Positions 3,770 to 59,930 of a stretch of 64,000 nt of DNA are shown piece after piece. Made by a program: the position numbers and the translations under genes. Source of the stretch: Lucifuga dentata (lineage: Eukaryota > Chordata > Actinopteri > Ophidiiformes > Bythitidae); NCBI GenBank assembly GCA_014773175.1, contig VXCM01000067.1, forward strand, positions 250,524-314,523, written 5' to 3'. Under the pieces are notes generated by a model. That model worked only from the letters and a program-made list of their open reading frames with translations, was not told the DNA's origin and ran no database searches. Each line of letters begins with the position of its first letter. Within the stretch, counting starts at the first letter, position 1.

Positions 3770-3886
3770 TCATGTTTTCCGCTTCACTGGTGAGATCTTG
3801 ACGTCTTTTCGTCCACCTGCAGTCCGTCTGTGTAACGTAATGTCCTCGTCTTCTCCTGATCGTTGCTTGGCAAAGTTAACAAACAC
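3770..3886 (-). CDS. abca4: abca4 exon 49: VFVNF tail and stop codon
   Basis: The last coding exon follows a 744-bp intron that contains a fold-back element. The acceptor is TTGAGCAG, and the exon begins VFVNFAKQ, the C-terminal motif shared by ABCA1, ABCA4 and ABCA7 that is needed for folding and function. It runs 38 codons, ending in a basic tail (GGRKDVKISPVKRKT), then TGA at 3770-3772. The length is close to that of mammalian ABCA4 but the far tail is not conserved. It is easily missed because a 590-bp repeat separates it from exon 48. Confidence 0.9.
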   Translation of the reverse strand: MFVNFAKQRSGEDEDITLHRRTAGGRKDVKISPVKRKT

Positions 3887-3975
3887 CTGCTCAACAGAAA
3901 TACAGACGTGGTTAGATGGTCTAGTTGAAGCCACGTTAGACAAAAACACATTTCATGTTTTTAAAAAAAATGCTT

Positions 3976-4565
3976 TTAAAAGACCATACCACCCATTTTG
4001 CATGTTTGTATGTTATATTCAATTTTCATACACATAAGGTTACTGACAAGCATTTTCCACATGATAAAACCATATTTCAGCTTTCCTGATATTTTGCAAA
4101 ATCTCAAAATATTCATACAAAAAAAATCATACAAAATCAAATATTGTAGCGATACACCCACCTTAAAAATCAATGTTTCGCCTGCTAATAGTTATGTAAA
4201 ATTATGAAGTCAAGGTTGTTAAAATTTTTCCATAAACGCTGGTCTCCTTTTGGGACTATATTCCCCGGCGGAGACATACATTCACTCCGCTCTTTTTATT
4301 GCGCTTAAACGCTAAAATTACAAAACTTCGAAAAAACCCGAATATACATGTTGTCGACGATAATAGATTATCTATCCCAAGAACATTTCAAGTATCAACA
4401 AGTTGATTTTAATAGCGTACCAGAATGAACTGAAACCAATGGCGGTCTATTTTTAACTCACCGTTCCAGTAGTATGCTTTGGGAAATGATTGTCATTAAT
4501 CTTACGTGTATGAAAATTAAATATATTCGGCTCAAACATGCAAAATGGGTGGTATGGTCCTTTAA
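3976..4565. mobile_element. fold-back TTAA element, copy B, in the last abca4 intron
   Basis: TTAA at 3976-3979, then AAGACCATACCACCCATTTTGC. The right end is GGTGGTATGGTCCT with TTAA at 4562-4565. The right half closely matches copy A. The left half carries a different inner segment shared with copy C (aaaatcaatgtttcgcc, acacccacctt). It fills most of the intron between exons 48 and 49. Confidence 0.8.
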
Positions 4566-4630
4566 GTAAGCAAACATGTATAAGTTGCAAAGCCTTTCTG
4601 GTGGTGACTGGTGGTTCATACACACGGTAC

Positions 4631-7600
4631 CTGATCGAGTGTTGTCTGGGAAACTGAGTAGTCTTCTATGCTGAGCCGGTCTTTATTCGCCACCACCAGC
4701 TGGAAGATCCTGGCTAGGGAGGAGGAGGCGATCTCATACTGCAGCGTGTTGTAGTGCTTCTCCCTCTGAACACAGCTGGGGAAGGAGCTTTCCATGAAGC
4801 TCTCCACAGGTTCCAGATCTGGGGACAAGCCAGCTTTAGCTGCCTTGATTTTCATGGTCACGACATACCCATCACCAAATCTGGATGAGAGAAACACAGA
4901 AACAATTCTCTTATATTTCTATCCAAATCACATGTCTTGTACTTAGTTGCTTCCTTGTGGGACAAAAACTGCTTTAATCCCCCAAATCTTTTATATCTTC
5001 ATATTGTTGCGAAAGTCGGGCTCTTCATTTATATTGATGTTACTCCAACACAAAGCTTGAATCATTTTTCAATCAGAAATTTTAAAGCTTATGAACCTTC
5101 TTTACCAGGATACCAAGAAGTTTTGCTAACTGCACTTTAGGGGTTCATACAGTAGATAGTACATGCACCAAAGTTCTATATACAGAAAGCACCTTACTTG
5201 TATTTCAAATGCTGGATGGTGCCCAAACACTTGAAGGTCCCATTGACCATGATGGCCAGTCGAGTGCAGAGGGCCTCACATTCCTCCATGCTGGTGAAAA
5301 ACAATAATCCATCTTTATTTTTTAGTGCTGCTATTTCATACCTCCGGGAAATACATCATATTTTAATGGCTCACTATGGTAAAATCAAGCAATTTACAGT
5401 CTAGTCATGATATTATTAACAGCTTGGCTCAACAGTTAATTGTGTTGCAGCAGACGTGTGGTGGATTCATTTATTTATTAGGAGTTGAACCTGTGTGACG
5501 TTAGCACCACAGCCCTGCCGTCCTGAATGACACTCATGATGGCGTTCCACAGAAACCGCCTAGAGTGAGGGTCCATTCCTGTGGTAGGCTCATCCTAAAC
5601 ACATACAGGCACTAATAAAAACTTGATTCTCCCAAACCATAATTCTGTATGAACAGAAACCAAATCCTTATCTGTATCAGCATATGGCATAGATCTCAGA
5701 TTTATGCCAGATTTGAACTGAACTCTGCAGTTGCTTGCCAAAGTATGAAAGATTTGATGCCAGGCTTGACTGGCCCCATATGGCTTCCCATCTGGATCCA
5801 TAGACCATTTCATTGACAAATTTCTGCATAAAACCCAAAAACCCAAACAATGAGCTCATGAGGATGCTGTCGCCATTGGATAACTCACCAGCAGCACCAG
5901 AGCTGGGCAACCAATCATCGCAATAGCTGTGGAGAGTTTGCGTTTGTTGCCTCCACTGTAGGTTCCTGCACAGCGGCTGGCATACTCTGTCAGACCGAGC
6001 TTCTGGATGCCCCACTCTGCCACCTAGAGGAGAAAGAGGACAAATTCCATTAGGTGGTATGGTAATTGAATCCTTTGTAGCATCATTACAGTAGAGTACA
6101 CCAAAAATTAAAAGGACAAAACAAATAATCAGTAACAGTAAAGAGATGACATAAAAACAAACAAAAAACAAACAGTAATTTCACTGTTGCAATATCATAA
6201 AACACATATCACAATGTAAAGAAGCTGGAGTTCTACTCACTCTGGGAATCTCTGACTCAGGTATGCCTCTGAGCCGTGCATAGAGGTAAAGATGCTCCCT
6301 GCCCGTTAGGAGATCATCAATGGCATCAAACTGAGGGCAGTAGCCCATGTTCTGGTGCACATCCAGAATCTCTGACAATATACTGCAAAACAAGCCACAA
6401 GGTGCAACCCCAGCAATAACGTGGAACAATTAAACATTAAACAATTCTAGGTCATGTTTGACTAATTTAATTTGTTAAAACATTGCTGAAAAGATGGCGA
6501 CTTCATTGAAGTAAAACCTTGATTATTTTAATGAATATTTAATGGAAAATGTAGTAATCCAATTTTAGCGATTTATCCCACTGCTTCTTGCCATTGACAA
6601 ATTTTCATTATTCTAACTTAGACTCTTTCAACACGGAAAGGTCACCATAGATATATACTTTTTTTTTTTTTTTTTTTTTAAGCGAATATGAAAGCAGAGC
6701 AAATTATGAGTTATATCAGGCTGGGAGTCAAAAGTCTCTTTTCTGCCCTTTCGGATTTTCCTGATATGCACCTGTAACCAGCCACAGTCGCCTCTCCAGA
6801 GCTGACATCAGTGTCACCGGTCAGCATTTTGAAGGTTGTCGTCTTACCAGCTCCATTCACACCCAAAAGACCAAAACACTAACAGGACAACAAGATAAGG
6901 ATAAAGATAAGGATATAGAATAGCTTTATTGTCATTATACGTAACATATAATGAAATTACATTATATATAAAGATAAAGAAAAAGATAAAGATAAATATA
7001 GGATTTTTATGTGAACACATTCCTCAGCAACTTTTAATATCTCTGTTGAAGTCTCATTTTATATTCTATTTAGACTCAGTTTCATATAATGAATTCAAAC
7101 AGAGGTCATATTATTTGCAGTATGTCTTTCCCAGTCTGGATGAAAGCTTATGTCAGCAGCTGTACATGTTTACTACACAAAAATGAAAAATGTGACTATT
7201 GGAAATAAAAATAGCGTCATAGCATCTATTTAATAAATTCAGTGACTTTACCTCTCCGGCAGGGACGCCCACACAAATCCGGTCCACAGCTGCCCTCTTC
7301 CTGCCCACATATGTCTGTGCACAGAAGAATGGAATTTAAAAAAAAATTATAGATGCACTCTGTAGATCTTTTTATATGAATAACTTGCATTTCTTTTATG
7401 CTGTAAATTTACAGGCTTGCTTTTCTTCACATTGTAATATATGCTACAGGTTGTTATGCAGTATATTTCATATCATTGTGCTGTAGGAGTCCTGTATTTT
7501 TTCTTTTCCCAATAAGATTAATAAAATCATACTGCTATTTCAGACCACCTAGTTAAGCTACAAAACCCAGGTTTTCATACTTTCAGTCATTTCATTTTAC

Positions 7601-7924
7601 TATTAATAGAGCAACACAGCAATAAAGCAAGTGAATGCAACAAAAAATATAAATAAAATAGACAGTAACAAGTAATTAAAGCCTGATGACAGAAAGTCAG
7701 GAAATCCAAACAGCTCACCTTTAACAGTACATCTAATTATAGAATAACTTATAATATGTAATTGAGATAATATACAGGTATATAAAATCAAAGCAAAAAG
7801 TACCTTGGAGAGGTCTCTGATCAGCAAGATGTCTGACTTGCTTCCTCCATCATAAATCCTCTGCTTCTCTTCTGCCACATCATTGTCTTCATCATTTATT
7901 GCAGGCAGCTTGTGGTCTGATAAC
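4631..7924 (-). CDS. abca4: abca4 exons 41-48: nucleotide-binding domain 2
   Basis: Exons at 7804-7924, 7252-7314, 6772-6878, 6241-6382, 5889-6023, 5491-5594, 5198-5290 and 4631-4880 encode about residues 1945-2283. Motifs are Walker [12 protein letters not shown] (Lys2018), Q-loop YCPQFDAID (Gln2059), signature [11 protein letters not shown] (about 2110-2120), Walker [14 protein letters not shown] across the exon 45/46 border (Asp2135, Glu2136) and H-loop VVLTSHSMEECE (His2168). Exon 48 adds the C-terminal regulatory block [12 protein letters not shown] with [16 protein letters not shown] and QTTLDQ. Everything expected for a working ATPase site is present. Confidence 0.95.
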
Positions 7925-8263
7925 CTGAAGGACAAAAGAAAAACTTCTGAGATGATATGTCTGAAACAACAGAGTTTCCCACTTCTTGCCATTCGTCAGT
8001 GTGAGATACCATTCTGACCCTTTGGCAAAAAATTTCACTTTTCTTTGTTTCCATGCAGACTTATAATACACAGTATTAAAGTATGTTAAAGTTGCACTTT
8101 TAAAGACTTCAAAAGTCTACTTTTTATGTAAAGCTTCAAGATTTTGCAGGTTTTTTCACTAATTCTGGCGCTTTAACCAGAGAGGAGAAACTCATTAATA
8201 ACATGAGCTGCTGTAATACTTGGTTAAAGGACCGAGAGTTATCTGTGTGAGCCAGACTCTTAC

Positions 8264-10957
8264 CAGTGGTTTAAGAAGAAATGGTACTGGATCAGAAGGT
8301 TTAGAATAAAGTAGATGAAGCCTTCCACTGCCATGAAAGCAACATTTTTCCCTACAAAGTCCCATCGGAAAGGGTCCACTGTGTGCTTTTCACCTGGAAA
8401 CAGAGATGAAGTCTGTGCAATGGCTTCTAAAAATCCACTGCATGTTCAGGCAGTAAAAAGAAAACCCCATGGTGTTTTATTTTATACTTTCTGCAGGCTT
8501 ATAGGCATCATTTTCCACTGAGATGAATGAGGTAATCTAAGTTTTCATAAAAGTTACTACTTAATTCAATTTCTAGGCTGATTATGTTTAATTATGTTAT
8601 TAATTGTTATTAATTGTTAAATCATTTCTTACTCACAAAGCTGATATGAGTTTGGTTGGGTTTTTCACATCTATCAACAATGTGAAATGTAAAACTCTTT
8701 TACTGTATAATTGTTTTAAATTTGATTTCCATATGTACTATTTTTAATTGTAGAATTATAATCAAATAAAGTTTGCAGATTCAAGTAAAATCCCCACTGG
8801 GAAATGTCTGTATATCCTAAGTGATGACTACCAAGCTGAAGCAAGGCATGATACATTTTAAACAGCTTCTTACTAAAATATTTATAAGCTATTTGAAAAT
8901 AAATTTTGACACCTGTTAGTCATGGAAAATTGACTTTACCATAATCCAGCGCTTACCAAATCTGGCATAGACATCAGTGACAGCCTGGTTCATGGCCATG
9001 TCTATAAGACCCCGTCCAAGGCAGAAGTGAGGGAACACCAGCAGACCTTTTTTCAGCCACTTGTTGAATGTCAGCAAAGACTGATAACACACACACAACA
9101 CACACAAGCACGTATGGTTCACAATTCTCAAAAAGAAAGGTTTTGGTCAGTGAAGCAGCTCTAAGTATATAATTCCAGATTTACAGTCAGTGAAGCAGCT
9201 CTAAGTCTAGTCTACTGGAGATATTACCACAACAACCAGAACAAAATCAACCCCTTCACAGGTTCTCTCATGATATATCTATTTTAGGAGGAAACCGTGA
9301 GACCTGTGACCATGAGTAGAAACATCTGGAAAAAAGCCTCACACATTTCAGAGAGGTAATTAAGGTCACTAGTAGCCAATATGGTGTCATCTGCACCCTT
9401 TTCCTTTTCTTTTCCTCTGTCTCGTCCTGCCCCAAGTGTAATTTTCAGAGCCAGTCATTCCTCACCCGTCCACTAGGTGCCCTCAGTGTGCCCTGCACAC
9501 TTGTGGCATCTTCACCTTGCATTAAAGCTTCCAAACATTCTATCATCAGTCATAAACATGCTTCAAATATTGTTTTGATCTCAATTATTCCAAAATATCA
9601 AACTCTAAGATGCTACCAGTGGGTCCAGCTTCACAAACTCTTCTTATGCAGCCAAATATAGTTCAAACCCATATAGTTTTAATCTTAAACTCTAGCAGAG
9701 ATCCCAAAAAATTTATAAAGATAGCACATATGTCATTCTGAATGTTGAGGAAATCTGTTTAAAAATCATGTAGCATTTGAGTGTTTCCCCTCAGGTTGCT
9801 GGATTATTCAATGCCTTACTGACTGAATTATTTCACCTATGTGTTGAAATGTGACTTTTTACACTTCGCATAAGCCCTTACTCGATTGTTTTCAAAAAGC
9901 TCCAGGATGAAGGTGATGGCACTGCTGTTGATGCCGATGAACAGGTTGATGCAGGAAAGAGAGACATATGCAGTACTTGGAATGTTGAATACGTAGGACA
10001 TGGGATACATCATGGGAGTCACTGACCACCTGTTAAAAAAAAAAGCCAGAAAATACTTTAGAATGACCCCCTATTGTCTCATTAAGGTATGAATAATAAC
10101 TCCTTTGAATGCATTTAAAATATCTCATTATTCCCCCTCCAAAATAGTTTCCTTTTGTGTTTTATCATATTGATCTTTTTAAATTTCAGTGGAGAACAAA
10201 TGTGAACCCAATGAAACTGCACCTTACCCGTATAACAGAAGTAGTGTTATTAGCGCAGGCAGGTTGGATGGTGATGTATAACACTTTTTGTCAAAAGCCA
10301 CGAAAATGCCAACCACCATTGCAGTGCTGAGAGAGTAATTCATCTAGAAATACAGTATTCATGTGGGATGAGGAGGAGAAAATCTATTATTGCACAGAAA
10401 TAACATCCATTCTCAACTGTCTGTGTTCTTTTGCCCATTTTCTTCTTGTTTGCCAGTTTCAGATAGCCAGCATCCAGGAGTCACCTTTTCACTGTTGCAG
10501 ATGACACTGGAATTTGTGCTATTTAATGCTATATATTTATCAATTTAATGCCACCTTGGTGAATAAAAGTATTAATTCCTATCTAAAACAAGAAAAAAAA
10601 TTCTGGATGATTCCAAACTTTTGCACACTAATATAAACAATGGCTGCATACTGTAGCATAGTACACTAAGGCTAATAACAGATAATGTAAATATGCATTC
10701 TGTGCTGGGTAGATTTATATAATGAAAAGTTAATAAATAGAGGATTTAGTAATAATTTTTTGCTCCTAGCCTTGCTCACCATGTCCCAGAAGAAGTTGGC
10801 CACCCAGTAGACCACTGGGCTGACCCCACTAACAAACTGCAGGTGTTTAGCTTTAGTCACACGCTCCTGGATGAGGTAGAGGACAAAGCTGGCAGGGATG
10901 AAGGACATGGCAAAAATAACACAGATTGCCACCACTGCATCTACTGAAGTGGTCAAC
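8264..10957 (-). CDS. abca4: abca4 exons 36-40: transmembrane helices 8-12
   Basis: Exons at 10780-10957, 10228-10343, 9882-10029, 8957-9080 and 8264-8393 encode about residues 1713-1945. They carry the second membrane domain: [69 protein letters not shown], and [20 protein letters not shown] with the coupling region [10 protein letters not shown]. The spacing and lengths (178, 116, 148, 124 and 130 nt) equal those I recall for the human exons. All five exons are open and have consensus splice sites. Confidence 0.95.
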
Positions 10958-11413
10958 CTGAAAAGACAACAAAGAGTCGGTATATAACACACAGGGTGAA
11001 TAATAATTGGACAGAAGATATTTCTGCCTGAGTAATTAGAGCAAAGATCTTGCCTATCTGTCTTGGTAAAAAGCAGTCTCATATGTCTCTGTTCTACCTG
11101 ATTTGTGGTTTTGACCTTTTAGAAAATTCCTCAAAATTAATCAGCTAAGATGCATTTTCACAAAGTACTGAGTGAAACCACAAAAGGAAATTAAACATGG
11201 CTATAAATAAAACTAAGAAGTGGTGTATGTTAAGAAAATGATTAGAAAATGATTAGAAAATGATTCTAATCATTTTCTTTTTTAATAACTTTTAATAATA
11301 GAAATGTGTTAAAATGGTGTTAAAATATCCATGCAATACAAAAAGCTGTTTCACTGTGGCTGCAGGAGGCTACATAAAATTTAAAAAATAAACTAAACTA
11401 AAATAACACTCAC

Positions 11414-13879
11414 ACGGTGACCTCAGAGAGCTGCTCTTTGGTGAGGTTTAGCGGGTGGTTGATGGCAGTGATGCCAAACTCGACAGGTTTAGCTGTGTGA
11501 GGTAGAAAGGCTCGCAGAATGGCATTATTGGCCACATTCATGAAAGCCACCATGGCATGCCAGCCTTTGTTGTTATACCAGACCTGACAGAAGAGAACAG
11601 AGTTAATTGAACACCTTGAACAACTATCTGACTTGCTAATTACAGACTTGTACATCACTGATCTATGATGGAGGGATTTGCAAGCCAATCTTCCATGGAC
11701 AAAACATTCATTATGTACTTTAATTGGGTAGCAAAGCTATTAAACCAAGTACTTAGAGCCATTAGTCAAAGCCCTGGTAATATGACAAACTTTATAAAGT
11801 GAAAAGAGTATGAGCTGAGGTACTCTGTGCAGGGCTGCTTTATCCACAAGGGTAACATATATTTAGTCAAAATAATTTAGACAAACTTAGAAACAATTTC
11901 TGCCACTCACTTAATTGCCATATGTAGAAAATTCCATATATCACCTGGACATAATAATACATTCTACACCTGCCTACCTTTACATTGAATTCACTTTCCA
12001 TGTATCGCAAGAAAGGACCAATCTCCTTCAGTGCAAGTCCAGAATAGTACCCCTGTGAACAACAATACTCATTATGATCTGACATGATGAATTTCATATT
12101 ACTCTCATATATATATATGTAGTAAACAGGAAAACAGTAAATACCCCTGTGATGTTGAGCATCTGTCCCGTTTGATGGAAAACATTCTGGATGTCTGCAG
12201 GGTGGACATCCAGGACAGGAAGCTGTCCTCCAACTGACAGACCGCCATATCTGAAACATCAACATGTCTTGGAAGGCTTGTAGCATATTATCTCCACAAG
12301 AGGGAGACAGACTATGTGACAGATATGCAAATGCAACTTATGTCAACAAGGAGAAAATTATTACCTTTGTTCATTCACCCAGTATTTGCTCTTCAGACTG
12401 TGAAATGAAAATTCAAAGTGATCTCAACAAATGCAGAGCTGTCGTAATTGAATGTGTTAAATAAATGCCTAAACATAATAATTAATTCAATGCATTTTGA
12501 GCCTTGTGAAGAAAATCTCACTTTCCCGCTACATTCTAACCGACCTGGTTCTGATGAGACTGGGGTAGGTTTTGACCAGATAGTCAGAGATGTTCCGGTC
12601 TGTTAGATCCAGCATCGTGTCTCCTGAAGTCTCAATCCGTTGGCGTGGGGGCAGACCCCCTGCTCCGATTGGACAGATGGGCATCATGGTCAGCTTCTTA
12701 CTGGAGCTGCACTGGCAGGAAGGGGAGGGGTTTCTCTGGTTCCACTCAGGACTCAGTAAGATGTTGCTGACCACAGGGGAGTCAGGCTCCTCCCACCCTG
12801 AGGTGCTGTTTCTACAGGGCATCCTGGATGGAGATGAGAAGAGACATCCGAAAATCTGAAATCAGTCAGCATCCAGATGCTCAATATGCATCAGCATGGT
12901 GCTTTTTTTATACCTCTGCCAAGGAGGTCATGTGATCACCAGTGCTTCTCTGTTTCAACATAAAATTTAAGGGACAGATAAATAATATCGAGAGGAGGAA
13001 GTGATTAAATTTTGAAGTTGATCTGGATCGCATTCTGGGTCCAGGATCCAGAAGAAGTTTTTAGGCTATACAATCAATGATAATGGTCTGATTTCAAGAA
13101 GATTCAGAGGTTTTTTTTTTGCTGTTTTTTTTTTTTAATTGGGAATTTTGTTGTCCAAATGAAATTTTTAGCCTATAAAATCCTTGGTGGAGGTATGCAC
13201 TCTCAGTGTCTTCTTGTTTGGGTCCTGCATTTGCATTTGTAGTTACTGTAAGTTGCTATAGTTAAATTATACGTGAGTATTGTGTGTCTCTGCACTGATT
13301 ACGAATTCATTGTTCATTCATTATTCAATGAATAAACAGATTTTTATCAGACTGATTGAAGTCATGAATTGTAAGTGCGTTAATAGCTGTTATGGATGTG
13401 TCATGGCATGTATTACGCTTTGACTCTATATCTTTTTAATGACACAGAATGTCTGTACCTGTAATTTTAAGTGCTAGAAATAATAACTACATGTGTAATA
13501 TTTGTATATTTTGTATTAAATAGTGACACTCACCCTAGTGGCTCTCCCTGCATGCAGCGTGTCCCCAGGCCTGGTTGGTTTAACAAACGCTTCATGAATC
13601 CTTTCATTTTTGGGTCAAATGGTTGCTCATTACTTCATCGCAAAAAGAGGAAAAAAAGAGGAAAACTGGGTTGAACAACCTGACTGAAGAAAAAATATAT
13701 ATAATTCTTGCAGGTTCTAGCCATTGTGCTCATCTGTGAGTCATGAGGTCTGACCTGAAGAAGATGGATTGTTCTCCGTACATCCAAGGGGACAGAGTCA
13801 GACTGGGATACTCTCCAAACGGAGGGACGATCATGGTGAAGAGCAGAGCTATCAGGACAAAACTGGCAGGTAGGACAAT
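11414..13879 (-). CDS. abca4: abca4 exons 28-35: TM7 and extracellular domain 2
   Basis: Exons at 13755-13879, 13534-13632, 12545-12823, 12365-12397, 12145-12250, 11978-12052 and 11414-11583 encode about residues 1418-1713. The first gives TM7 and the [19 protein letters not shown] block. Then come the Cys-rich luminal domain ([27 protein letters not shown]), the [19 protein letters not shown] block, the short 33-nt exon [11 protein letters not shown], and [20 protein letters not shown] with [16 protein letters not shown]. The 279-nt exon at 12545-12823 equals two adjacent human exons, so an intron is absent here. There are no stops or frameshifts. Confidence 0.94.
12925..13210. repeat. dispersed fish repeat remnant in abca4 intron
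   Basis: The sequence gatcaccagtgcttctc through ttgatctggatcgcattctg to ccttggtggaggtatgcact resembles a repeat seen widely in teleost introns. A related piece (ttaaattttggtgtggatct) occurs at about 29118-29205. No coding capacity; the family is not named. Confidence 0.5.
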
Positions 13880-14030
13880 CTGGAAAAATAAGTCACACCA
13901 CTCTAGTACAGTGGTTCTCAAACTGTGATACATGTACTACCATTGGTACTTGAAGTGCCCCCCTGGTGGTACAACAGATGACCTCTGGCTTTCTGTTATT
14001 GTGGCAAAATATTGACAATTATACAAGATA

Positions 14031-14077
14031 TAAGCTAAGCTAAGCTAAGCTAAGCTAAGCTAAGATAAGATAAGATA
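14031..14077. repeat. (TAAGC)n / (TAAGA)n pentanucleotide repeat
   Basis: About six TAAGC units followed by three TAAGA units, in the abca4 intron between exon 28 and the exon at 14220. Confidence 0.95.
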
Positions 14078-14219
14078 AAAGAGTTATTTACAAAGCCACA
14101 GTCTGCAGTCAGTCTACTGATCCCATAATCCACCTTTCTACCTTTCCTGTCCACACTAACCCATCCACCCATCCCTTTATCGCTTCATTCCCACCATTCG
14201 TTATTTTCTAGTCCAGTAC

Positions 14220-16049: not shown

Positions 16050-16169
16050 CTGACAGAAACAGCAAAAAAACAAAACAAACAAAAAAAACAGCAGCTTTAA
16101 CAGTGAGAACAAAAAACACTCTGGACGTAGAAATAAAATACGCTAATCCAGTTGAGTGTTAAACCTCAC

Positions 16170-18323: not shown

Positions 18324-18527
18324 CTGTCTTTCCTGAGTCCTGACACTCCTCCTGATTTGGCATTTCCTCTTGTTGTCTCAGCATCTCCTTCTCTCTCTCC
18401 ATTCGATCCCTTTTACTCTGGTGCTTGCAGGCTGTCCTGCATGCAGAACCATTACAGCTGTTTGTCTCTGGAGTCTTCCTGCTCTCAACATCTTTCTCCA
18501 CATTCTCTGGTCTGGGTTTTTCAAGAT
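18324..18527 (-). CDS. abca4: abca4 exon 18: charged cytoplasmic linker before NBD1
   Basis: This 204-nt exon (68 codons, phase-neutral) encodes about residues 893-961. It is rich in Glu, Lys, Arg and Gln (for example KRDRMEREKEMLRQQEEM) and contains four Cys. It joins the last helix of the first membrane domain to NBD1. The matching human stretch is also acidic but clearly shorter (90 nt as I recall). The sequence is low in complexity and probably disordered. The acceptor (TTCCAG) and donor (GTGAGG) are good and both phases fit the neighbours. Identity rests on position and frame, since the linker itself is poorly conserved. Confidence 0.85.
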
Positions 18528-18785
18528 CTGGAAGATTTAGATGGTAGAACAATTCCGCTTATCATTGTCCTATTATATGGAACTTCATTTCCATTCTCAT
18601 CCTAACATCATTATGTGCAGACCCCGTCTAATACAGCCACAGTGTTTCATGAGACATTAAGCATCTTATGCAGGAGCAACTGGTTAATGAATTGAAGAAG
18701 TGTGTGCATTCACTTTCCCAAACCCTCCAGTCACAGACTTGTGTCTATAAGGCATATGAGGATTATTACAGCAAGTGATTCTAAC

Positions 18786-19909
18786 CTTGATCAACCACAT
18801 CTGGATGCGAGGGTGCAGGTCTGCACCAGTATGAAGGCTGGAAGGGGAAATAAAATGGCCGACCAACACCATATTGCCCTGTGGAGTAGAAATTTAATAT
18901 AATTCACGGTATATAAAGTTTTAGTACCTATAAAGTGTTGAACAACCCTATGACATAAAGCATATATTAGCAAAAAGCAACAAGAGCCAAACCTGGGAAG
19001 ACGTTATCCAGATACCAGGCCAGGACAGCACAGAGGACAGCATTGAGCATCATCATGCCGATGGAGGTGAGGAAGGAGTAGGAGTCTCTTTCTAAGGGGC
19101 TGGTTTGGATGTTGTCCCACTGCAGACCCAAACCTTGCTCCTCATACCGTGACAGGTACTCTGTCCCAAAGCCAAAGGCCACTGGTGACAACAAGCTCTA
19201 CAGCAGTAGAGGGATGCAGAAAGAATGACTTAATTTAATTGGTGGTACGGAATTTTTTTTTTTTTTTATAAACAAGCGAGCCTGCTATCACTCTCCAAGT
19301 TTTGCCTTTAAGAGACACACATACAGCAGCTAACTTCATGTTCTTGGTGATGCGATCCTGCCAGGCAAAGCAGAGGATGTGGGGCAGGTAGAGGGTGAAG
19401 TAAATGATGCCACTGCAGGCAGCTGCCAGGTTGGCTTTGTTGAAGAACACACTCATCAGGAAACACTGCATGATGGTGGTGACAGTGAACGTCAGCAGAA
19501 AAAAGAAGACGAGGACAGGATCGCTGTAATTAAGCACCTTCCCACCCTGAGAGAAAAAGGATACAGGGTATTATGAAGTTCAATGCAACACTATGTCTGC
19601 ACTATGTATGAATCATCCACTAGAGGGCACTATTACATTCTACAAAAGATTAAACATGCAAACTTGCAAATAAAACTTGTTCTCACCATGATGATGGAGG
19701 TGAGCAGTGCTGTGTTGGCCGTCATCATGATGAAGCTGTCAATGAACCACGTGTACCAAATGACTCCGTTGCTGACCCCCATGGCTTTCAGGGTCTCTTT
19801 GAGGCGCAGCTCCTTCTCTAGCACAATGCTTTTCACAGTCATGGATACAGACTAGATCCAGGCCAGCACCATGAAGATAGGGAAGCAGCGGTTCAGTGTG
19901 ATCATGAAG
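18786..19909 (-). CDS. abca4: abca4 exons 14-17: transmembrane helices 2-6
   Basis: Exons at 19687-19909, 19325-19546, 18993-19197 and 18786-18878 encode about residues 645-893. Exon 14 begins TM2 ([13 protein letters not shown]) and then reads TAG at codon 664, where ABCA4 has Tyr before [20 protein letters not shown]. After the stop the coupling-helix motif [17 protein letters not shown] is intact, followed by the TM helices of exon 15 ([20 protein letters not shown]) and exon 16 ([12 protein letters not shown]). Exon 17 (93 nt) gives the [13 protein letters not shown] segment that leads into the linker. It resembles the ABCA1-like form and is longer than the 66-nt exon I recall in human. 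The exon 16 donor, GTTTGG, is weak. All other borders are ordinary. Confidence 0.93.
19852..19854 (-). other. abca4: in-frame TAG stop, abca4 codon 664 (exon 14)
   Basis: The plus strand reads cta, so the minus-strand codon is TAG, between ATC and TCT in AWI-stop-SVSMTVK. Exon 14 keeps its 223-nt length and both splice sites. ABCA4 has a Tyr here, so one change at the third base (TAC or TAT to TAG) explains it. Confidence 0.9.
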
Positions 19910-20362
19910 CTAGAGGAGAGGAGAGGAGAGGAGAGGAAAGGAAGGTGAATTAGAATGATTTCATTGGCAGGTTAGAAAAAAACTCCAAAAATAGTTCCAT
20001 TTCTGCTCATTTTTTTTGGAAGAAGATTGTAAAGATTGTGGAAAGATTGTGTCGCTGGAAACATGTTTTGGATAGGGCAGGTTCGACGTAGCAAATTTAA
20101 TGTGTGAACTTGGCCAAATTGCCTAATAACTTTTCTGTGATGATGGGTCAGAGGTTTGTCAGGGTGGAGGGGGAAATCACTTGTGCTGTTTCGATTTTGG
20201 GAATTTGAATCCTTATTATTATGCGTTATAGCAGATTTAACATTGCCAGAATTTGTGCTTTCTTTGGGGTTGCCTGTACTAAAAGTGTATGCAATCTTCC
20301 AAGGTAGTAAACTCTGGATAAAGCATCCACCATGTATGACATCAAGTGACTGGGCTACTCAC

Positions 20363-23300: not shown

Positions 23301-26300
23301 AGATCTTATATGTCCCTTTCCCCTCTGAATTATATCCCTTGAAATCTTAAATTAAAAGCATCCCTTGTACCCTGTTACATTTTACAAGCCAATGATCATT
23401 CAATGGTCACAGGAATGTTGCTATGTTTTTACATTCTTTACTACCAGCATTGGGAATAAGAAATGACAGTCCGATTCTCCACCTGACCACCAGCTCTCAC
23501 CGCCTAGTTTCCCTTACTTCACCTAACTGTGTCACCCGCTCCCAATTTCCTAATTAGCTGTATGTTTACATATACCAGCCAGTTTCTTTTAGTCCCAATT
23601 AGATTGTCTTGGAAGCATATAGCTCAAGTGTTCAGCCATTTACCTGCCTGTGAATCGTGATCTGACAATGACACTCAAATCCGAAGTTCTTAAAACCTCA
23701 AACACAGTGTCAACTCATAAGCAAGTCATAACGTGTTGTTTACTAACTTTATTCCATTTCAAATTAGCATAAAGTGTGTTTAAGAGCAGTCTAGTGATTG
23801 TGTAGCCATTATTTCTTGTAATCTCTCATCCTGATTGGACATATCACCAGATATGTGCAGCATATAAGCACAAATGGTACATGGTTCTTACCCTGATCAT
23901 GTTCATCTGGACACTGTTGTGAAAGAAAGCCCATAGCTGAGGTCCCACCTCCTCCCAGGCTTTGGCCATGTTCTGGAGCCTCTCCAGCTCTTCGAATGTT
24001 GTATTGGCCTGAACGCACACACGATTTCAATTCAATGCACACAGTGTAAAGTCGTCACAATAGACCAGCAGATTTAAAGAGAGAGGCTTTCCATGAATGT
24101 CTATCTACAAGCCATTTTCAGAGCTATATCAACTAAAGTGGAATCCATTTGAGTGTCATCCTAGCCAGATAATAGAAATACTGAAGTGTTCAGGTAAAAA
24201 AGAAAACCTGCCCTGTTCACCTGATGACTTTCTCAAATAAAACAAGACAGAGATAGAATGCTGGTTTGGATTGTCTCATTTTACTTTGTTCAAGATCTCT
24301 CTCATCAGATCATGTGAAAATAGCGTCAGGTAGTTAACACCAGCAGGATCAGAGAAACCCAACATTCCATTTATCCAAAGTCTCAACTACCTTCACTTCA
24401 AACCATATCAATGCTCAACAAGCGCACACTTACATCAGAATCATTTTCTGTCCCTGAGTAAATCGGCTTTCTCCTGAGACTGTTTTGTCTCAGTAACAAT
24501 AAGTGAGACATGGAAGACTGCACCTATATATTCAGTTTAGCATCCAATTCTCCCCTCTGCTTCCCTTCCCTCCCACTGCAGTAAACAGTCCCATATCCCT
24601 CCACCTTCCTGTGCTTCGATAGTCAGCTCATTCCTGAGTAGGGTGGGGAGGATTATCACAAACAGATACTGAAAGCATCGAAGGAAAAGTGTGGGTAGAG
24701 ACATAGCGAGAATCTAAGAGAGGAGACAGACAGAGAGGTGAGGGGTCGGGCTGGAGGTGGTCTCTCTTACGCTCTTTAATATCTTGCGGATGGCAGGGGA
24801 GTCTGGGGTGTACAAGATCTTTCCCATCAGCAGGGGTTTGACTGAATTCCACACAATTTTTGTGACAGGGTTTGACTCCAGGCTTTCCATCAGGGCATTG
24901 CAGAAAGGAGCTATGGGAGGAGAATGAGGAAAAGCTACAAAAACTGCAGAAAGGCATTATCTTCTGATTGGTGCAGAGTACACACAAGTATTTTCTTACA
25001 TCCTCCAGATCTGGGCCTAAGATAGATTGTGCACACATGCTTGTGTTTAAATTGTTCATTTGTCATTTACAAGGACAAAAACTAAACACGGTTTTTCACT
25101 TACTGGCATTGTTGTCGTAGGCATAGTTGTGGTTCTTGGTGCTGTTGACCCCCAAAAACACCTTGTAGTTGTTGTCCTCATACCAGTTGAAGGACAGAAC
25201 CCTGGAGCCGCCTCCCTCTGGGTAACCGCAGAAGAGACTGGATACACTGGACATTAACTGGGTGAAAGAGGAGGGACCCCCAGCTTGGAACAGAGAGTAG
25301 ACCACTTTAAGGAGATCTTTGGAGCTTTCCCGCTCCATCAGCTATGAAAGCTATTAAAAAAACAACAACACAGATTTAGGAGAGTAAAAATTGGGAGTTT
25401 TGGGTCAGAGTTTAACAATTCTAGGTGTGATACGCATAAGTATCATAAGCAAGAAATTACATGAGCTCTACATTTACATGGCAAACATATCTCAAATTGT
25501 AAACAATATTTAGCTATTTATAGCAATTGTGCATGTGACAGGCAAATTAAAAACTATATGAAGAGTTTGTCCAAAACTAGCGTGTGTGAGTGTGAGAGTG
25601 TGTGTGAGTGTGAGGGAGAGTGAAGAGAAAGGGAGAGTGGGAGAGGGAGAGAAAGTGTGAGAATGAGTGTGAGAGTGAGTGGAAGACAGAAAGGTACATG
25701 GATTTGACCCATGTCTGGTTTTCTGCAGTAATTATATACAACATAGTGGTGTTTCTATTTGTCATATTCATTCATACCATGTGAATTTTATAATATAAAC
25801 TCTCGCTATAAAACAATAGCTTGAAAGACAAGCAAACATGGAAGAATGCCTCTCCTCACGAGACAAGGACAGTCTGAGGGTGGAATAAATATCCTCCCAT
25901 TGATAGAACCAAAATAGCCTCATCAGACTGCATTTCTCCGCTGTATGTATCATTTCCTCTGAGATGAAATGGCGGGGAGGTTGACTTTTGGTTTTGTTCG
26001 TTTAAAAACAACATATCTGGGATGAATTTCACAGTTTTAAATAATGAAAAAGTAAGTAAGTGGAACAAAAATAGAGGAATTTTATTAAGCATGTTTGAAC
26101 CCATTAAATACAACCCAGATACACGTTATCTGGGTTACATTACATTACTGTCAATCATTTTTTAAGGGAATATAAATATTAAAATTGTTTTTCCTACCTT
26201 CCAGACTGCCATTGGTTTCAGTTCATTCCAGTACGCTATAAAAATCAACTTGCAAAGACTTGAAATGTGCTTAGATACATAATCCATCACAGTAAAGCAT

Positions 26301-26899
26301 GTTTTAATTTTTTTGTCAGTTACTCCATAGAAGAAAATGTATAGTCTTAACATAATGTCTATGCTGGTCGTATTTATTGGGCTCAAACATGCAAAATCAC
26401 GAGTATGGTCCTTTACATCAAATAAAAATATCCTCAATTCCTAGAACTGAGTGTTTGAAAAGTCAACTTGATCTCTGGAGGGGATCATTTTTATCTGGAA
26501 TTCAGTCCTTCCTGGCAATTTGTTCAGAGGCCTTGACTTTATTATCATAGTTTTATAATCCCACTACTCCAACATGCAGACTGTGTCAGACAGTACTGAA
26601 ACAGCTTTGAAAGGTCTGTGATTAAAGTGACTCATCACTCTACTATGTCCCTCTACTCTGCAGACAGACTTAATGCATGTACATGCATATGGACACACAC
26701 ACAAACACACAGACAACGCACACCCTCAATTTCTCTCTCTCTCTCACTCCCTTTTCTTCCCTTTTCTTATTGATTTGACACACATCACACACAGGCTAAA
26801 TTAAAGGAAAGAGATGTGGGTAATGAGAGTAGTTGGCTCGACTTTCTGTCACCACGGTGATATGAAGGTCCCACCTACAGGCTATGTCAGCTCCAAGGA

Positions 26900-26958
<59 letters not shown>

Positions 26959-29598
26959 CCATGACAAAGATGATGATGGGAAACACTCCCCCATGGGATG
27001 TACAGTGAACGTGCTGAAACACACAACAGTCTGTGTGTGTGTTCAAGTAGGCAGTGTAAGAAGGAAAAACGTGCAAATACAGCTCTATTCTATTCTATTT
27101 TATTCTATTCTGTTCTACAAATTATGCAAGTATTATAGTCCCTTATATTGCAAAGTTAATATATATGCACTGAATTAAGCAGTGCATGCAAAAACACACA
27201 CACATACACACATAAGTAATCATATAGATTTAAATCCAAAAGTGCACACATATAAGCATCTACACACATGCATATATGTATGTGTGTACTCAATTGTACA
27301 CACACATACATACTGTACATGTATGCCCAGACACACATACATGCATACAGCACATTGCTGAACCCATCACTCAGAACTCCTCTGTGAGCTTTTCTCAGAG
27401 GAAGAGGTGAGTTTCCCACGAGCTAAAAATACTGAGGCCTCTGATCCTACAGCCTGAAAAGAAGAGCGTAGAGGGCAGGAGTGGAAGGGATTGATGGACT
27501 TCAGAACACTTACAACTTGGATCTTCTCTGATGCTGCCTTAAGAACCCGACCCCAGAAGTGCAGGTCAAGACCTTCAGAGCTGGGATTCATAACCCGGGG
27601 CATCTGGGGGGGAAAAGGTCATAAATGTAATTCTGGATTCTGGAGACAGTAAAGTGAAATATTCATACAATTACAACCACAGCCTGATCTAGTGACCCCT
27701 TGCTGTCTGTGTATTCTGTTTTCAGTGGTGCTGTGTGAAGGACTCAGACAGCTACACACATTCACAAGAAGCCAGTTAAACAATTTCAGGGATTGGAACC
27801 AACACCCTTCTATGTAAAACCCCATTACAGAAAACATTTAGCCTTCTTTTCTGGCAATAAGATTGGGTCTGGCCTATACGTGGAATATCGCAGAACCGAG
27901 AACCTTTTGTGAACCTGTAATAGACTTCATGCTTAATGATATTCACTAAACTTCCCTCAGCGACTTGTATTTTTTACTACTTTAGGCAGAATCCATTAGC
28001 ATGAGGTGTTAGAGAGCGCCTGGTCAGGGCAGAGCGCTGAAGGCTACGGAAACACTGAATGCCAAGACAAACAACCACATGAGATATCCTTCCTTTCACA
28101 TTCCTCTCACCTACATTTCAATGAATGAAGGAAGGAGGGAGGCTGTGAAGGGGAAAGAGAAAGCGAGTGAATAGGAAGGGAGGGCGTCAATAGGTTGATG
28201 GGAGAAGGGTGTGAGGAGTATGACGGGAAAAGGAAAGGGGTAAGTGGGTCGTACTGGGCTTTAAGCCTAATAAATGTGTTAAATATAAGGATTGCCATCG
28301 AGATGTTGTACTAATACAAACCAAGGAAAACACTGACTCAAGATGGTTTTCTGATATTCACTGAATGTCACCATAACTGGAACACCTTACAGTATATTGC
28401 AATTCAGTATGTCACATGGATCCTTACAGTAAACTGGATTTATTTAAGGTGTTCCTGTTGTTTTGTCCACTTCCTGTACGTACTGTATGCTAACAGAATT
28501 TAAAGAAACCCATATTATGTAAGGCAAAAGTGTACAACCGACATATTGAGCAATGAACTTGCCTTGGTTTGCATATGATTTCATCAAAGTCTTAAATAAT
28601 TGGAAAGTTTACTGGTAAGCAAAATATAGAGCAGCATGATTTCATCCACAGAACTGAACATGATCAGTTGGTGAAGTAAAGCAACAAACTTTTTGTCTTC
28701 CTGAAAGACATAAGTAAAGGCTTTTTCAACTCCATCCTCCCTGCTCCAACCGTTCAAGTCCCGTTTGGGTGCTATAGCCAGACACTGTACCAACCAGACA
28801 GCACGATGTACTGCCTCTTACATTGACTGAGCTCTACAGATTGGTACGTTAGTAATGTATGTATACTAGATGCTGCACCATGTCTTCAAGACTACCTTAC
28901 AGGCTGTGGGCGGGGCTTAGCTAAGCCCATTACAGAAATAGGCCAAGGGATAATGCCATGCCAACCTCCTGAGCCAGTCATCTGACTCACACCGGCTGAA
29001 CCCAAACATGCAGTATAGTGAGGAACTGATGTGCCATGAAGAGAAATAGTTTAACTACCGTTGTATCTAAGTTGTGAGATAGGTGTTTTCCTTCAAAACA
29101 GTTATAAACCAATTTTATCAAAGCTTGATGGAGGGTGGGGTATGACCTGGGGAAGAACCCATTAAATTTTGGTGTGGATCTGGATTCAGGGTTGGATCCA
29201 AGAAGGGCAATCAGTCCTGTAAAGACAGCTAAAGCCTTCAGGGATCTCATTGGTAGCAAGGACTGCACAACAATGAAAACAACCCCTTCTTCCAAAATGA
29301 GAATCTTTATCAGAGACGTAACCCTATTCTTAAGTGAAGGAGAACCAAAAACCAATGGTATAATCACAGGGAGCAACAGGATGCAATGGGAATTACTGAC
29401 CAGTTTGAAGATTTTGAAGAAGTCCAGATTAGCGTAGAGAATGTCCTCTATCTTCTGCAGCTTTTGCTGGCTGAGGGCACACATGATGTTGCGCACTACA
29501 TGCGGGCCTCTACGACTGGGAAATATGATGAAGTGCTCCAGCAGGGCCTGGCTGCAGGCAATATCTTTAAGCTGCAGATCTGGGATGCCAAAGGCAAA
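20363..29598 (-). CDS. abca4: abca4 exons 6-13: extracellular domain 1
   Basis: Exons at 29401-29598, 27514-27603, 25104-25341, 24771-24910, 23892-24008, 22966-23163, 21034-21239 and 20363-20539. They encode about residues 191-645, the bulk of the large exocytoplasmic domain that receives the retinoid-lipid substrate. Conserved blocks are [20 protein letters not shown] in the form [20 protein letters not shown] (exon 8), [14 protein letters not shown] (exon 9), WEEVGPQLW (exon 10), [12 protein letters not shown] (exon 11), [20 protein letters not shown] (exon 12) and [12 protein letters not shown] (exon 13). Several N-x-S/T sequons are visible. No stop or frameshift is present in these eight exons. 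Introns here are the longest of the gene (up to 2.2 kb) and carry most of its microsatellites. Confidence 0.94.
21240..22965. other. abca4 intron 11 (1.7 kb), microsatellites, no gene
   Basis: Contains (CA)n at about 21748-21766 and 21990-22014, a T/A-rich block near 21580-21650, and otherwise unique sequence. No conserved coding block was recognised on either strand. Confidence 0.7.
26100..26416. mobile_element. fold-back element, degraded copy D, in abca4 intron 7
   Basis: The right end ggctcaaacatgcaaaatca with agtatggtccttta (26380-26414) and the inner block ctaccttccagactgccatt with ggtttcagttcattcc (26200-26229) match copy A. The left terminus is lost or decayed. It is the oldest-looking of the four copies. 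Confidence 0.65.
26902..26958. repeat. compound (TC)n(AC)n microsatellite
   Basis: About 41 bp of TC repeats run directly into about 16 bp of CA repeats, in the abca4 intron between exons 7 and 8. Confidence 0.95.
29118..29205. repeat. second copy of the dispersed 'gatctggatc' repeat
   Basis: Plus strand gggaagaacccattaaattt then tggtgtggatctggattcag parallels the segment near 13000-13035 (gtgattaaattttgaagttg then atctggatc). It is a short fragment in the intron between abca4 exons 6 and 7. Confidence 0.45.
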
Positions 29599-29834
29599 CT
29601 AGAGAAGATGAAAAGGAAAAGGTGCAATGTCATGTCGAGTCAGAGAAGATAATTAAAGTCAAGATTCTGTTATGTCACTTTTTTGTCTGTGGGGTATGTC
29701 TGACTTTTACTCACTTTAAATCACTGGAAATTATATTAAGTTTTTCAGTATTGTTTTACAAATTCAGGATGCGTCGTCATCCTTTACCATTAGCAGGGAA
29801 GAACCCAAGACTCATTTATAACTTCATGCTGTAC

Positions 29835-32158
29835 CTGTTCTAGTCGTATTTGTGCATTGAGGAGCTGGTAGACCACAGAACTGGAGAAGCCTACGTCTCA
29901 CAACAGGAAGGCTGTGAAAACCTTGTCATCCTTCAGAATGTCTTTTACTTTCAGTCCTTGTCCTACATGAAAAGTCAGGAGTTAGTGTAAGAAACAGAGA
30001 TTATCACGCAAACAATTCTGTTTCTCTAGCTTGTCCAGAAAGAAACATCTGAGTCCATGAGACTTTTTCTGTTCTCATTATAGAGTTAAACAGGGCCTGC
30101 TCTCTGGACCACACAGCATCTCTCACACTTTCACTTATACCTGCAACCACAGACGGGTTGTTGCGTAATGTTTCCATAAAGTCTGAGAAGGAGGACATTT
30201 CTTGCCAAAGCTGACCAAACTGCTGGACCTCCGTCTCCTTTAGCAGAAGCTCCTGGATGTCAGCATAGAATCGTGCCAGTCTAGAACACAGAGCCAACCA
30301 AAACAAATTAGTCAGCTAATTTATTATCTAGTGATAACAGTGTGGAATGTAAAGCATTATTATCTCATTTAATTTAATTCTCTCATCGTTCATCCATTTT
30401 CTATACCCACTTAGCCTAATTGGGGTTGGAGGAAATGATTCCAGCATTCACTGGGCAAGAAAAGAGTAATAATATATCATTAAATCAGTCATTGAATCTG
30501 GTCTTTTTTAATCATCTACAGCCAGAGATAATTGTGAAACAATTTTTTTCTTAATGATTATGTACACTAGACAAAACTTGAAGAAACAGTACAACAAAAA
30601 GACAATCAGAGGTCTGAATCAAAGGCCAGCTAATGTTTGGTTTTAATGAGCAAAAAAAAAAAAACCCCTACAGGGTTAGAGGTTTGATTCTGTGCTTCTT
30701 GGAATAAGACAACAAACTTACAGTATTTCTGCTCAATCTGAATAAAGGAGTCAGGAGTTATACGGTACCATCCTTATCAGCACTCGTGAACAAAACAAAG
30801 ACACTGTATATATAGCAGTTTGGTCCAGGGATTGGTACTAGAAAATAATTTTTCTGCAGTAGTTCTTGTGTCTGAAGCACAAGCATAGTGTGTTTTCAAG
30901 AGGTTTCAAGGTTGAACTTGAAATGAAATAAAGAAAGATAAAAGTTTTCTGTCGCAGCAGCAGCAGCAGCAGCAGCAGCAAACTTCAGTGTGTTTTGCTT
31001 TTAGGCTTACACAGAGTTGTTATAGTTGGACACGACCCCTGGAGACTCTCCTCTGGTTGGATATCTGAAGCAGGGGTTGTTGGCGTTGCAGAAGATGCCC
31101 TGGATCCAGGGTAGGATCCCTGCTGAGGGCATGGCCTTGTTGGGGAAATGACCTGGATGAAGAGATGACACAATGGAAGGCATGTGAGTGTTGTGATGCA
31201 ACTTTAAAAGAACTGCCAAAGGCTTAACATGTGCTGAACTTTCTGATAAAACTCCAACAAATACTGAGACAGGAAATGCTTGTCCGAGGATAAGAACATT
31301 CGCTTTTCTTCCTGATATTTAAAGAAAGCCCATTTTAACCAACAAATATTTTGTTTGTTAGTTATTTCTTACACTCATGTTGTTGGTACAGTGGGTTGGC
31401 CTTCCTCAGCCACACCAGACCAATAAATAACAACACTGGCCAGAAGATCTCAACCAGGAAGCGGATCTGAATAAAGACAGGTGAAGTGACACTCAAACAT
31501 ATTCATATAAAAGAGATTTATTTTGTATGACATGCTTCAAATGGTAGAAGTGGATGAAGGTTAAAGGACCATACGGCCATTATGCATGTTGGAGCCTAAA
31601 TATTCAGTTTTCATACATGCAACATTACTGACAATCAGTTTTCAGGTTTTTTTCAAAGTTATGTAATTTTTAGCATTTTTGCACAATAAAAAGAGTGAAG
31701 TGAATGTATGTCTCCACCGGGGAATATAGTCCAAAAAGAAGATCCGCATTTATCGAAAAATTTAAAGGACCGTGACTATGGCTGCATAACTATTAGTAGG
31801 CAAAACATTGATTTTTAAGGTGGGTGTATCGCTTGAATATTTGATTTTGAAAGATTNAGTAGGCAAAACATTGATTTTTAAGGTGGGTGTATCGCTTGAA
31901 TATTTGATTTTGAAAGATTAAGAAATATTGCAAAATGTCAGGAAAGCTGAAATACAGTTTTATCCTTTGGGGAATGATTGTCAGTAAGGTAACATGTTTG
32001 AAAATTGAAACAAACATGCAAAATGGCCAGTATGGTCCTTTAAAAGTTACAGCATTACAGTTGAATGAGGCAGGCAGCTAAGAGAAAGTTACCTTCTGCC
32101 TCTTGCGGAGAGTCCAGTTTTTCCACAGTAACAGGCGGACTTGACTGCTTGTATTCAT
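29835..32158 (-). CDS. abca4: abca4 exons 1-5: N-terminus, TM1 and start of extracellular domain 1
   Basis: Exons at 32093-32158, 31373-31466, 31011-31152, 30141-30280 and 29835-29962. The ATG at 32156-32158 opens a 22-residue cytoplasmic start whose [14 protein letters not shown] stretch is the family signature. Exon 2 supplies TM1 (about residues 25-42). Exon 3 carries the conserved [10 protein letters not shown] and NNPCF region with the SNYNNS sequon. Exon 4 is a helical segment of the exocytoplasmic domain. Exon 5 has a normal acceptor, donor and length (128 nt), but codon 169 reads TGA in the context [16 protein letters not shown]. The usual residue there is probably Arg, so a CGA to TGA change at a CpG fits. 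Start choice: it matches the mammalian N-terminus in length and there is no better upstream ATG. Confidence 0.93.
29898..29900 (-). other. abca4: in-frame TGA stop, abca4 codon 169 (exon 5)
   Basis: The plus strand reads tca here, so the minus-strand codon is TGA. It sits between TTG and GAC in a frame fixed by exons 1-4 upstream and exon 6 downstream. The exon keeps its 128-nt length and both splice sites. Skipping it would shift the frame, so splicing cannot rescue the product. Confidence 0.9.
30954..30980. repeat. (CAG)9 trinucleotide repeat near abca4 exon 3
   Basis: Nine CAG units on the plus strand, read as CTG in the abca4 transcript, begin about 30 nt past the exon 3 donor. Confidence 0.95.
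31561..32043. mobile_element. fold-back TTAA element, copy C, in abca4 intron 1
   Basis: TTAA at 31561-31564 then AGGACCATACGGCCATTATG. The right end is GGCCAGTATGGTCCT with TTAA at 32040-32043. It shares the inner segment of copy B (caaaacattgatttttaagg, ggtgggtgtatcgc). It includes the 63-bp N-joined duplication, so its true length is about 420 bp. Confidence 0.75.
31795..31919. repeat. 63-bp duplicated block around a single N (assembly join)
   Basis: The sequence from agtaggcaaaacatt at 31795 is repeated identically after the N at 31857. It has the same form as the join at 35364. It lies inside a fold-back element in abca4 intron 1, so it does not touch coding sequence. Confidence 0.85.

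Positions 32159-38200: not shown

Positions 38201-38240
<40 letters not shown>

Positions 38241-39307: not shown

Positions 39308-39338
<31 letters not shown>

Positions 39339-41694: not shown

Positions 41695-41731
<37 letters not shown>

Positions 41732-54561: not shown

Positions 54562-54592
<31 letters not shown>

Positions 54593-55180: not shown

Positions 55181-55243
<63 letters not shown>

Positions 55244-59875: not shown

Positions 59876-59930
<55 letters not shown>

What the first reader, a model, noticed from the sequence alone, without database searches (positions are those of the whole stretch)
3770..32158. abca4 keeps every exon, splice site and frame, yet has two in-frame stops
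All 49 coding exons join into 2,321 codons with intact Walker, signature and VFVNF motifs, but codons 169 and 664 are stops. A long-dead gene would also show indels and splice damage. Only very recent loss, redundancy with a second fish copy, relaxed vision (cave, deep-sea, burrowing or reduced-eye fish), or consensus errors fit this pattern.
Basis: partly seen in the sequence, partly recalled or inferred. Interest (0 to 1): 0.82.

Follow-up and report, generated by a model that had tools for sequence, protein, structure and literature searches.

The report
Blind cavefish lost both abca4 genes
The window holds a retinal gene (abca4b) of an eyeless Cuban cave fish that is complete except for two stop codons that switch it off, and the fish's other copy of the gene is broken as well, so this looks like ordinary, recent decay of a vision gene that is no longer needed.

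Summary
Spliced alignment finds abca4 on the minus strand, 32158-3770: 49 coding exons, 2,321 codons, no frameshift, stops at codons 169 and 664. The window is from Lucifuga dentata, the eyeless Cuban cave brotula: neighbouring ARHGAP29 is 1374/1374 identical to LDENG_00162840 of that species, and LDENG_00162820 equals abca4 codons 668-2321 exactly. This is the abca4b ohnolog. The only other abca4 found, abca4a on contig C261, is also broken: a stop, a 1-bp deletion and a missing exon block. So redundancy is not the explanation. Both neighbouring arhgap29 copies read open. A published decay clock for this fish's vision genes predicts about 1.9 disabling mutations for a gene of this size; two are seen, so intact exons are expected. 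Vision-gene loss in this species is published; abca4 is not named in that paper's text, and my searches of open-licence papers found no report of it. Reads, transcripts and other individuals could not be checked.

The parts
3770..32158 (-). abca4b (retinal phospholipid/retinoid flippase gene), 49 coding exons, 2,321 codons, two premature stops: a young pseudogene
   Evidence: spliced alignment; fish orthologs; tree; exact match of codons 668-2321 to LDENG_00162820; best PDB match of that part: human ABCA4
29835..29962 (-). exon 5, holding the first stop
   Evidence: AG...GT intact, 128 bp
29898..29900 (-). TGA at codon 169; Arg in 77 of 79 other fish
19687..19909 (-). exon 14, holding the second stop
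   Evidence: AG...GT intact, 223 bp
19852..19854 (-). TAG at codon 664; Tyr in 79 of 79 other fish
19840..19842 (-). ATG of codon 668, where the public annotation (LDENG_00162820) starts its 1,654-aa protein, just behind the second stop; probably an annotation artefact
   Evidence: position
35070..63353 (-). ARHGAP29 (arhgap29b), neighbour used as control; identical to LDENG_00162840 of Lucifuga dentata over 1374 of 1374 residues

Best explanation
The window gene is the abca4b ohnolog of Lucifuga dentata, an eyeless cave brotula. Once the fish no longer used its eyes, purifying selection on this photoreceptor flippase stopped, and mutations created stops at codons 169 and 664. Either alone should abolish the protein: the first leaves a 168-residue fragment without a transporter core and should expose the mRNA to nonsense-mediated decay (inferred, not shown). 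Loss is recent, of the order of 370,000 generations or 1.3-1.5 My by the published clock, which is why every exon, splice site and reading frame is still in place. The other ohnolog, abca4a, is also disabled, so no intact abca4 was found in the assembled genome. Shown: the stops, the exon structure, the species, the state of both copies, open neighbours. Inferred: that the stops are real and fixed, that no protein is made, and that loss of eyes is the reason.
For: Species: ARHGAP29 next door is 1374/1374 identical to a Lucifuga dentata protein; abca4b codons 668-2321 are identical to LDENG_00162820; in an 80-row FastTree the gene is sister to the ophidiiform Genypterus, local support 100. Published background: PMC7826195 calls L. 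dentata eyeless and finds 19 of 76 vision genes broken, with 22 disabling mutations (16 genes with one, 3 with two), against 0, 0 and 1 broken genes in three eyed ophidiiforms. Quantity: with that paper's frameshift rate and time (u = 1e-8, 367,779 generations), and stops and splice sites counted on this CDS, 0.84 stops, 0.37 frameshifts and 0.71 splice losses are expected, 1.91 in all; two were seen, and the chance of no frameshift and no splice loss is 0.34. Second copy: abca4a on C261 has TAA at codon 275, a 1-bp deletion, and lacks the exons for about 230 residues; those exons were not found elsewhere in the genome (26 of 26 candidates scored). Controls: arhgap29b 0 stops and frameshifts, arhgap29a 0 over 1,338 aligned codons. 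Relaxed constraint: 7 singletons at columns invariant in all other fish against 2.4 expected for abca4b (Poisson P 0.012), but 2 against 1.85 for ARHGAP29.
Against: No reads, transcripts or second individual were seen, so assembly error or a heterozygous null cannot be excluded. The missense excess is weak: the counts are overdispersed (chi2/df 1.93), four other species have a higher rate, and no nucleotide outgroup was available for dN/dS. Both abca4b lesions are stops, of which the chance given two lesions is 0.19. The contrast with the neighbours is small in number (0 lesions in about 2,730 arhgap29 codons), and my aligner can step round a lesion by calling an intron; arhgap29a was read against a 29b guide at 64% identity. 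The opsin exons that I looked at (rho up to an assembly gap, exo-rhodopsin, rh2) were open. Two of the 79 comparison proteins (P0053, P0096) are labelled LOW QUALITY PROTEIN, a label that NCBI uses for models mended over stops or frameshifts (recalled), so apparent lesions in abca4 assemblies of seeing fish are not unheard of. The cause (loss of eyes) is correlational.
Confidence: 0.88

Rival explanations
1. Redundancy: abca4b decayed because an intact ohnolog abca4a does the work.
For: Two abca4 genes are reported in zebrafish and marine medaka, and a second abca4 exists here on contig C261 next to an arhgap29 copy.
Against: That copy is itself broken: TAA at codon 275, a 1-bp deletion in the exon coding [12 protein letters not shown] with a stop within three codons, and no exons for about 230 residues on the contig or elsewhere at ABCA4-like identity. 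In zebrafish most Abca4 protein comes from abca4b, the copy that is dead here.
Confidence: 0.03
2. Consensus or assembly errors created the two stops in a functional gene.
For: The genome is a draft with 1-base N joins, some with duplicated flanks, and no reads could be inspected.
Against: Neither stop lies near an N or a homopolymer; flanking genes on both contigs read open. If errors were common enough to make two stops, about 60 other substitutions would be expected in this CDS (a stop is 3.3% of random changes). Both abca4 copies are hit.
Confidence: 0.06
3. The stops are segregating null alleles caught in one individual, not fixed losses.
For: One specimen was sequenced; heterozygous disabling mutations were reported for gcap2 in the sister species L. 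gibarensis.
Against: Two stops in one assembled copy plus a broken abca4a make a functional gene in the population less likely (inference).
Confidence: 0.1
4. abca4 still works through stop read-through, RNA editing, exon skipping or re-initiation at Met668.
For: Frame and splice sites are intact; the annotation proposes a 1,654-aa protein from Met668.
Against: A-to-I editing of TGA or TAG would give Trp, but the conserved residues are Arg and Tyr; exons 5 (128 bp) and 14 (223 bp) are not multiples of three, so skipping either breaks the frame; a protein from Met668 lacks the first 667 residues.
Confidence: 0.02

Closest known systems
Vision pseudogenes of Lucifuga dentata (Policarpo et al., PMC7826195; abstract, passages and sections 5, 6, 15, 27, 33 read)
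   Same: Same species by protein identity; few disabling mutations per gene, mostly one; same inferred cause and age
   Different: The classes named in its methods are opsins, crystallins, RPE65, arrestins, recoverins, transducins, PDE6, CNGA3/B3, GCAPs, zGCs and GRKs; abca4 has 0 occurrences in the main text. The full gene list is in its figure 1 and supplements, which I could not see
ABCA4 loss in subterranean mammals (listed in PMC7671337; one passage and two reference entries seen)
   Same: Same gene, among eye genes lost mainly in subterranean mammals
   Different: Mammals have one ABCA4 (recalled); here both teleost ohnologs are broken. By the abstract of PMC7826195 several vision genes of fossorial mammals carry many disabling mutations, unlike here
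abca4a;abca4b double-mutant zebrafish (PMC11744051; abstract and passages read)
   Same: Both ohnologs lost
   Different: Engineered in a seeing fish, with misshapen and elongated cone outer segments; here natural, in a fish without eyes

Membership tests
ABCA4 (retina-specific ABCA flippase) | Closer to ABCA4 than to ABCA1/ABCA7 | tested here: met
   P0241 (codons 668-2321): human ABCA4 2299 bits, ABCA1 1938, ABCA7 1662. The 120 listed hits are mostly named ABCA4 or P-type phospholipid transporter; some are unnamed and one (P0091) bears an unrelated name
ABCA4 (retina-specific ABCA flippase) | Two ABC ATPase domains and ABC-2 type membrane domains, VFVNF end motif | tested here: met
   on P0241 (PF00005 two stretches, PF12698 two stretches, PF23321); VFVNFAK read. 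In the DNA only: the stops precede them
ABCA4 (retina-specific ABCA flippase) | abca4b rather than abca4a | tested here: met
   Some hits carry the label member 4b (P0090, P0097, P0109) and one neighbour protein the label 29b (P0174); the other abca4-arhgap29 pair lies on C261. Rests on other databases' labels; no zebrafish sequence was compared
Pseudogene (unitary, by point mutation) | Premature stop, frameshift or splice loss in an otherwise complete gene with introns | tested here: met
   Two premature stops, introns kept
Pseudogene (unitary, by point mutation) | No functional product | not testable with these tools
   No transcriptome or proteome at hand
Cavefish vision pseudogene | Species with regressed eyes | tested here: met
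   Species by protein identity; eyeless by the paper
Cavefish vision pseudogene | Gene intact in eyed relatives | tested here: inconclusive
   Long ABCA4 proteins exist for the 79 fish used in the tree, including the ophidiiform Genypterus, but these are predicted proteins, two labelled LOW QUALITY (P0053, P0096), and broken genes would not appear in such a list
Cavefish vision pseudogene | Relaxed selection on missense changes | tested here: inconclusive
   7 against 2.4 expected singletons, P 0.012, overdispersed; no dN/dS possible

The most novel reading that the evidence does not exclude
Lucifuga dentata is a vertebrate wholly without Abca4: abca4a died first, perhaps while the fish still had eyes, and the later stops in abca4b removed the last retinal flippase, so that a Stargardt-like photoreceptor decline was part of the cause of blindness and not only its aftermath.
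Probability: 0.08. Interest if true: 0.7.

Novelty: new member of a known kind. Interest (0 to 1): 0.45.

Why it matters
It adds a long vision gene (6,963 bp of CDS, against a mean of 1,091 bp in the published set) to the broken genes of this cavefish, and shows that both teleost copies of the human Stargardt gene are damaged. Long genes collect disabling mutations in proportion to length, so abca4a and abca4b are sensitive clocks for the age of eye loss: four small lesions plus one exon-block loss are seen, against about 3.8 small lesions expected for the pair if abca4a is treated like abca4b (twice the 1.91). It also warns that public annotation can hide such a loss as a shortened hypothetical protein.

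Tried and rejected
Rejected: misplaced exon borders as source of the stops (the same two stops with four guide proteins; public model identical from codon 668 on); editing (residues do not fit); redundancy (abca4a broken). A second copy or haplotig of abca4b: the hits on C56 and C261 account for all matches of 74% or more, but only part of its candidates was scored, and the DNA search meant to test it did not complete. Hits on C3910, C1997 and C4281 are ABCA1 (PDB comparison of a translated piece of each: ABCA1 best); pieces on C2427 and C1405 match P0001 at 53-55% and were not classified further.

Led nowhere: the ABC_tran search of the genome gave no abca4 among the eight loci fetched. The opsin search showed only open exons. 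The terms abca4 and Y665X found no paper. dN/dS was not possible: no fish nucleotide relatives in the collections.

The missing abca4a exons: two 1-N joins fall in the interval, so an assembly gap is possible, although the break inside the next exon is not at an N, and no such exons were found elsewhere at more than ABCA1-like identity.

Rows dropped: of 120 hits, 79 entered the tree (one per species; isoforms, fragments and some species left out); of 120 hits, 68 entered. In some searches clustered mismatches (more than two within six columns) were left out for every row.

Full report
What is in the window. With Stegastes and Epinephelus proteins as guides it has 49 exons and 2,321 codons, no frameshift, GT-AG introns, and two premature stops, TGA at codon 169 and TAG at codon 664. 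The part behind the second stop is identical, 1654 of 1654 residues, to LDENG_00162820 of Lucifuga dentata, which starts at Met668: the public annotation turned the rear of the broken gene into a shorter hypothetical protein.

Which animal. The neighbouring ARHGAP29 (63353-35070, minus) is identical over 1374 of 1374 residues to LDENG_00162840 of Lucifuga dentata. In a FastTree of 80 ABCA4 proteins the window gene is sister to the ophidiiform Genypterus blacodes with local support 100. Lucifuga dentata is an eyeless Cuban cave brotula (PMC7826195). The window lies at 250524-314523 of contig C56 of a 598-Mb draft. The draft has N joins; in the window there are seven runs of N, 13 bases in all, and those at 31857 and 35364 have duplicated flanks. 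None lies near a stop.

Which copy, and is there another. Some fish proteins of this clade are labelled member 4b and one neighbour protein 29b. A whole-genome search with the Lates protein finds one other abca4-type gene, on C261, with 68-84% identity per exon; the hits on C3910, C1997 and C4281 are ABCA1 by comparison with solved structures. The C261 gene sits next to its own arhgap29 copy, as expected of the ohnolog abca4a. It too is broken. First, TAA at codon 275 in exon 7; the 4b column there is variable, Arg 46, Gln 24, others 9 of 79. Second, a 1-bp deletion in the conserved [12 protein letters not shown] exon, with a stop within three codons. Third, absence of the exons for about P0001 residues 1526-1757, the gene running from GGLPPPQ into the middle of a later exon. 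A search of the genome with that stretch, all 26 candidates scored, returned abca4b and pieces at ABCA1-like or lower identity, none on C261. Two N joins lie in the interval, so this third lesion is less certain than the other two. The stop in exon 7 could in principle be spliced around by a cryptic donor (GG|GTATAA, removing 13 codons in frame), but the other lesions would remain. No abca4a proteins of other fish were at hand, so abca4a was read against abca4b and human guides; 2,056 of its 2,286 modelled codons lie outside the missing block.

Are the lesions real. arhgap29b has no stop and no frameshift over 1,392 codons; arhgap29a has none over 1,338 aligned codons, though against a 29b guide at 64% identity. 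The aligner can step round a lesion by calling an intron, so these controls are good but not perfect. The reliability checks in the genome paper concern its own genes, not abca4. Two stop-making errors without a burden of other errors are improbable, because only 3.3% of random changes in this CDS make a stop. Reads were not available. Two of the 79 comparison proteins are labelled LOW QUALITY PROTEIN (P0053, P0096), so apparent lesions may occur in abca4 assemblies of other fish too.

Does the pattern fit the biology. The paper gives relative rates of 0.031 u for stops and 0.0143 u for frameshifts and a relaxation time of 367,779 generations at u = 1e-8. For this CDS I obtain 0.84 stops (0.79 with the paper's rate), 0.37 frameshifts and, counting four bases for each of 48 introns, 0.71 splice losses: 1.91 in all, with a chance of 0.85 of at least one and 0.34 of having no frameshift or splice loss. 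Two were observed. Intact exons with two stops are thus close to what the published age predicts. If two lesions are taken as given, the chance that both are stops is 0.19, mildly low. The answer scales with u, for which the paper cites values from 3.5e-9 to 6.6e-8.

Is constraint relaxed. At columns that are invariant in all other fish, abca4b has 7 changes against 2.4 expected from its branch length (Poisson P 0.012), while ARHGAP29 of the same fish has 2 against 1.85. The abca4 counts are overdispersed (1.93) and four fish have a higher rate, so this is only a hint. The terminal branch (0.06) is not long (median 0.049). The opsin exons seen were open, in line with the paper's 57 of 76 vision genes without a lesion.

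How it works, or no longer works. ABCA4 moves retinoid-lipid complexes in photoreceptors (PMC4607974, passage; established knowledge). In zebrafish most of the protein comes from abca4b, and double mutants have abnormal cone outer segments. A stop at codon 169 leaves no transporter. In a fish without eyes the gene has no known task, and mutations accumulate freely (inference). The order of loss of the two copies is unknown; abca4a has more kinds of lesion, which may mean that it died earlier, but both counts fit the same age.

Against what is known. Vision gene decay in this species is published: 19 of 76 genes. The gene classes named in the methods do not include abca4 and the main text has no mention of it; figure 1 and the supplements, which hold the full list, were not seen. 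Searches of open-licence papers for abca4 with premature stop, cavefish, subterranean, gene loss and Lucifuga terms showed no report of abca4 loss in a fish in their listings. ABCA4 is listed among genes lost in subterranean mammals. So this is a new member of a known kind: an expected but apparently unreported loss, made more complete by the state of the second copy.

Noticed in passing
window 31795-31920 and around 35364: 1-base N joins between duplicated contig ends (63 bp at 31857; another inside the last coding part of ARHGAP29): assembler artefacts that could be mistaken for tandem duplications or exon damage.
   Followed up: yes
window 4005-4564, 26203-26415, 31668-32042: A dispersed repeat (arms up to 110 bp, 79-92% complementary) occurs near the last and first introns of abca4 in opposite orientation and once in the middle; looks like a short DNA transposon family.
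   Followed up: no
L034 (G000:C261:185001-195000), about 192621: abca4a has an intron after ...GGLPPPQ where abca4b has none; human ABCA4 has it too (recalled), so the b copy probably lost an intron.
   Followed up: no
P0241 / LDENG_00162820: The public gene model starts at the first Met behind the second stop, so a database user would see a 1,654-aa ABCA4-like protein and miss the loss.
   Followed up: yes
L012 (G000:C1539:106632 region), L010, L011: Rod opsin gene is open for about 290 codons and then runs into an assembly gap; exo-rhodopsin (L010) and rh2 (L011) exons seen are open as well (gene names by resemblance, recalled).
   Followed up: partly
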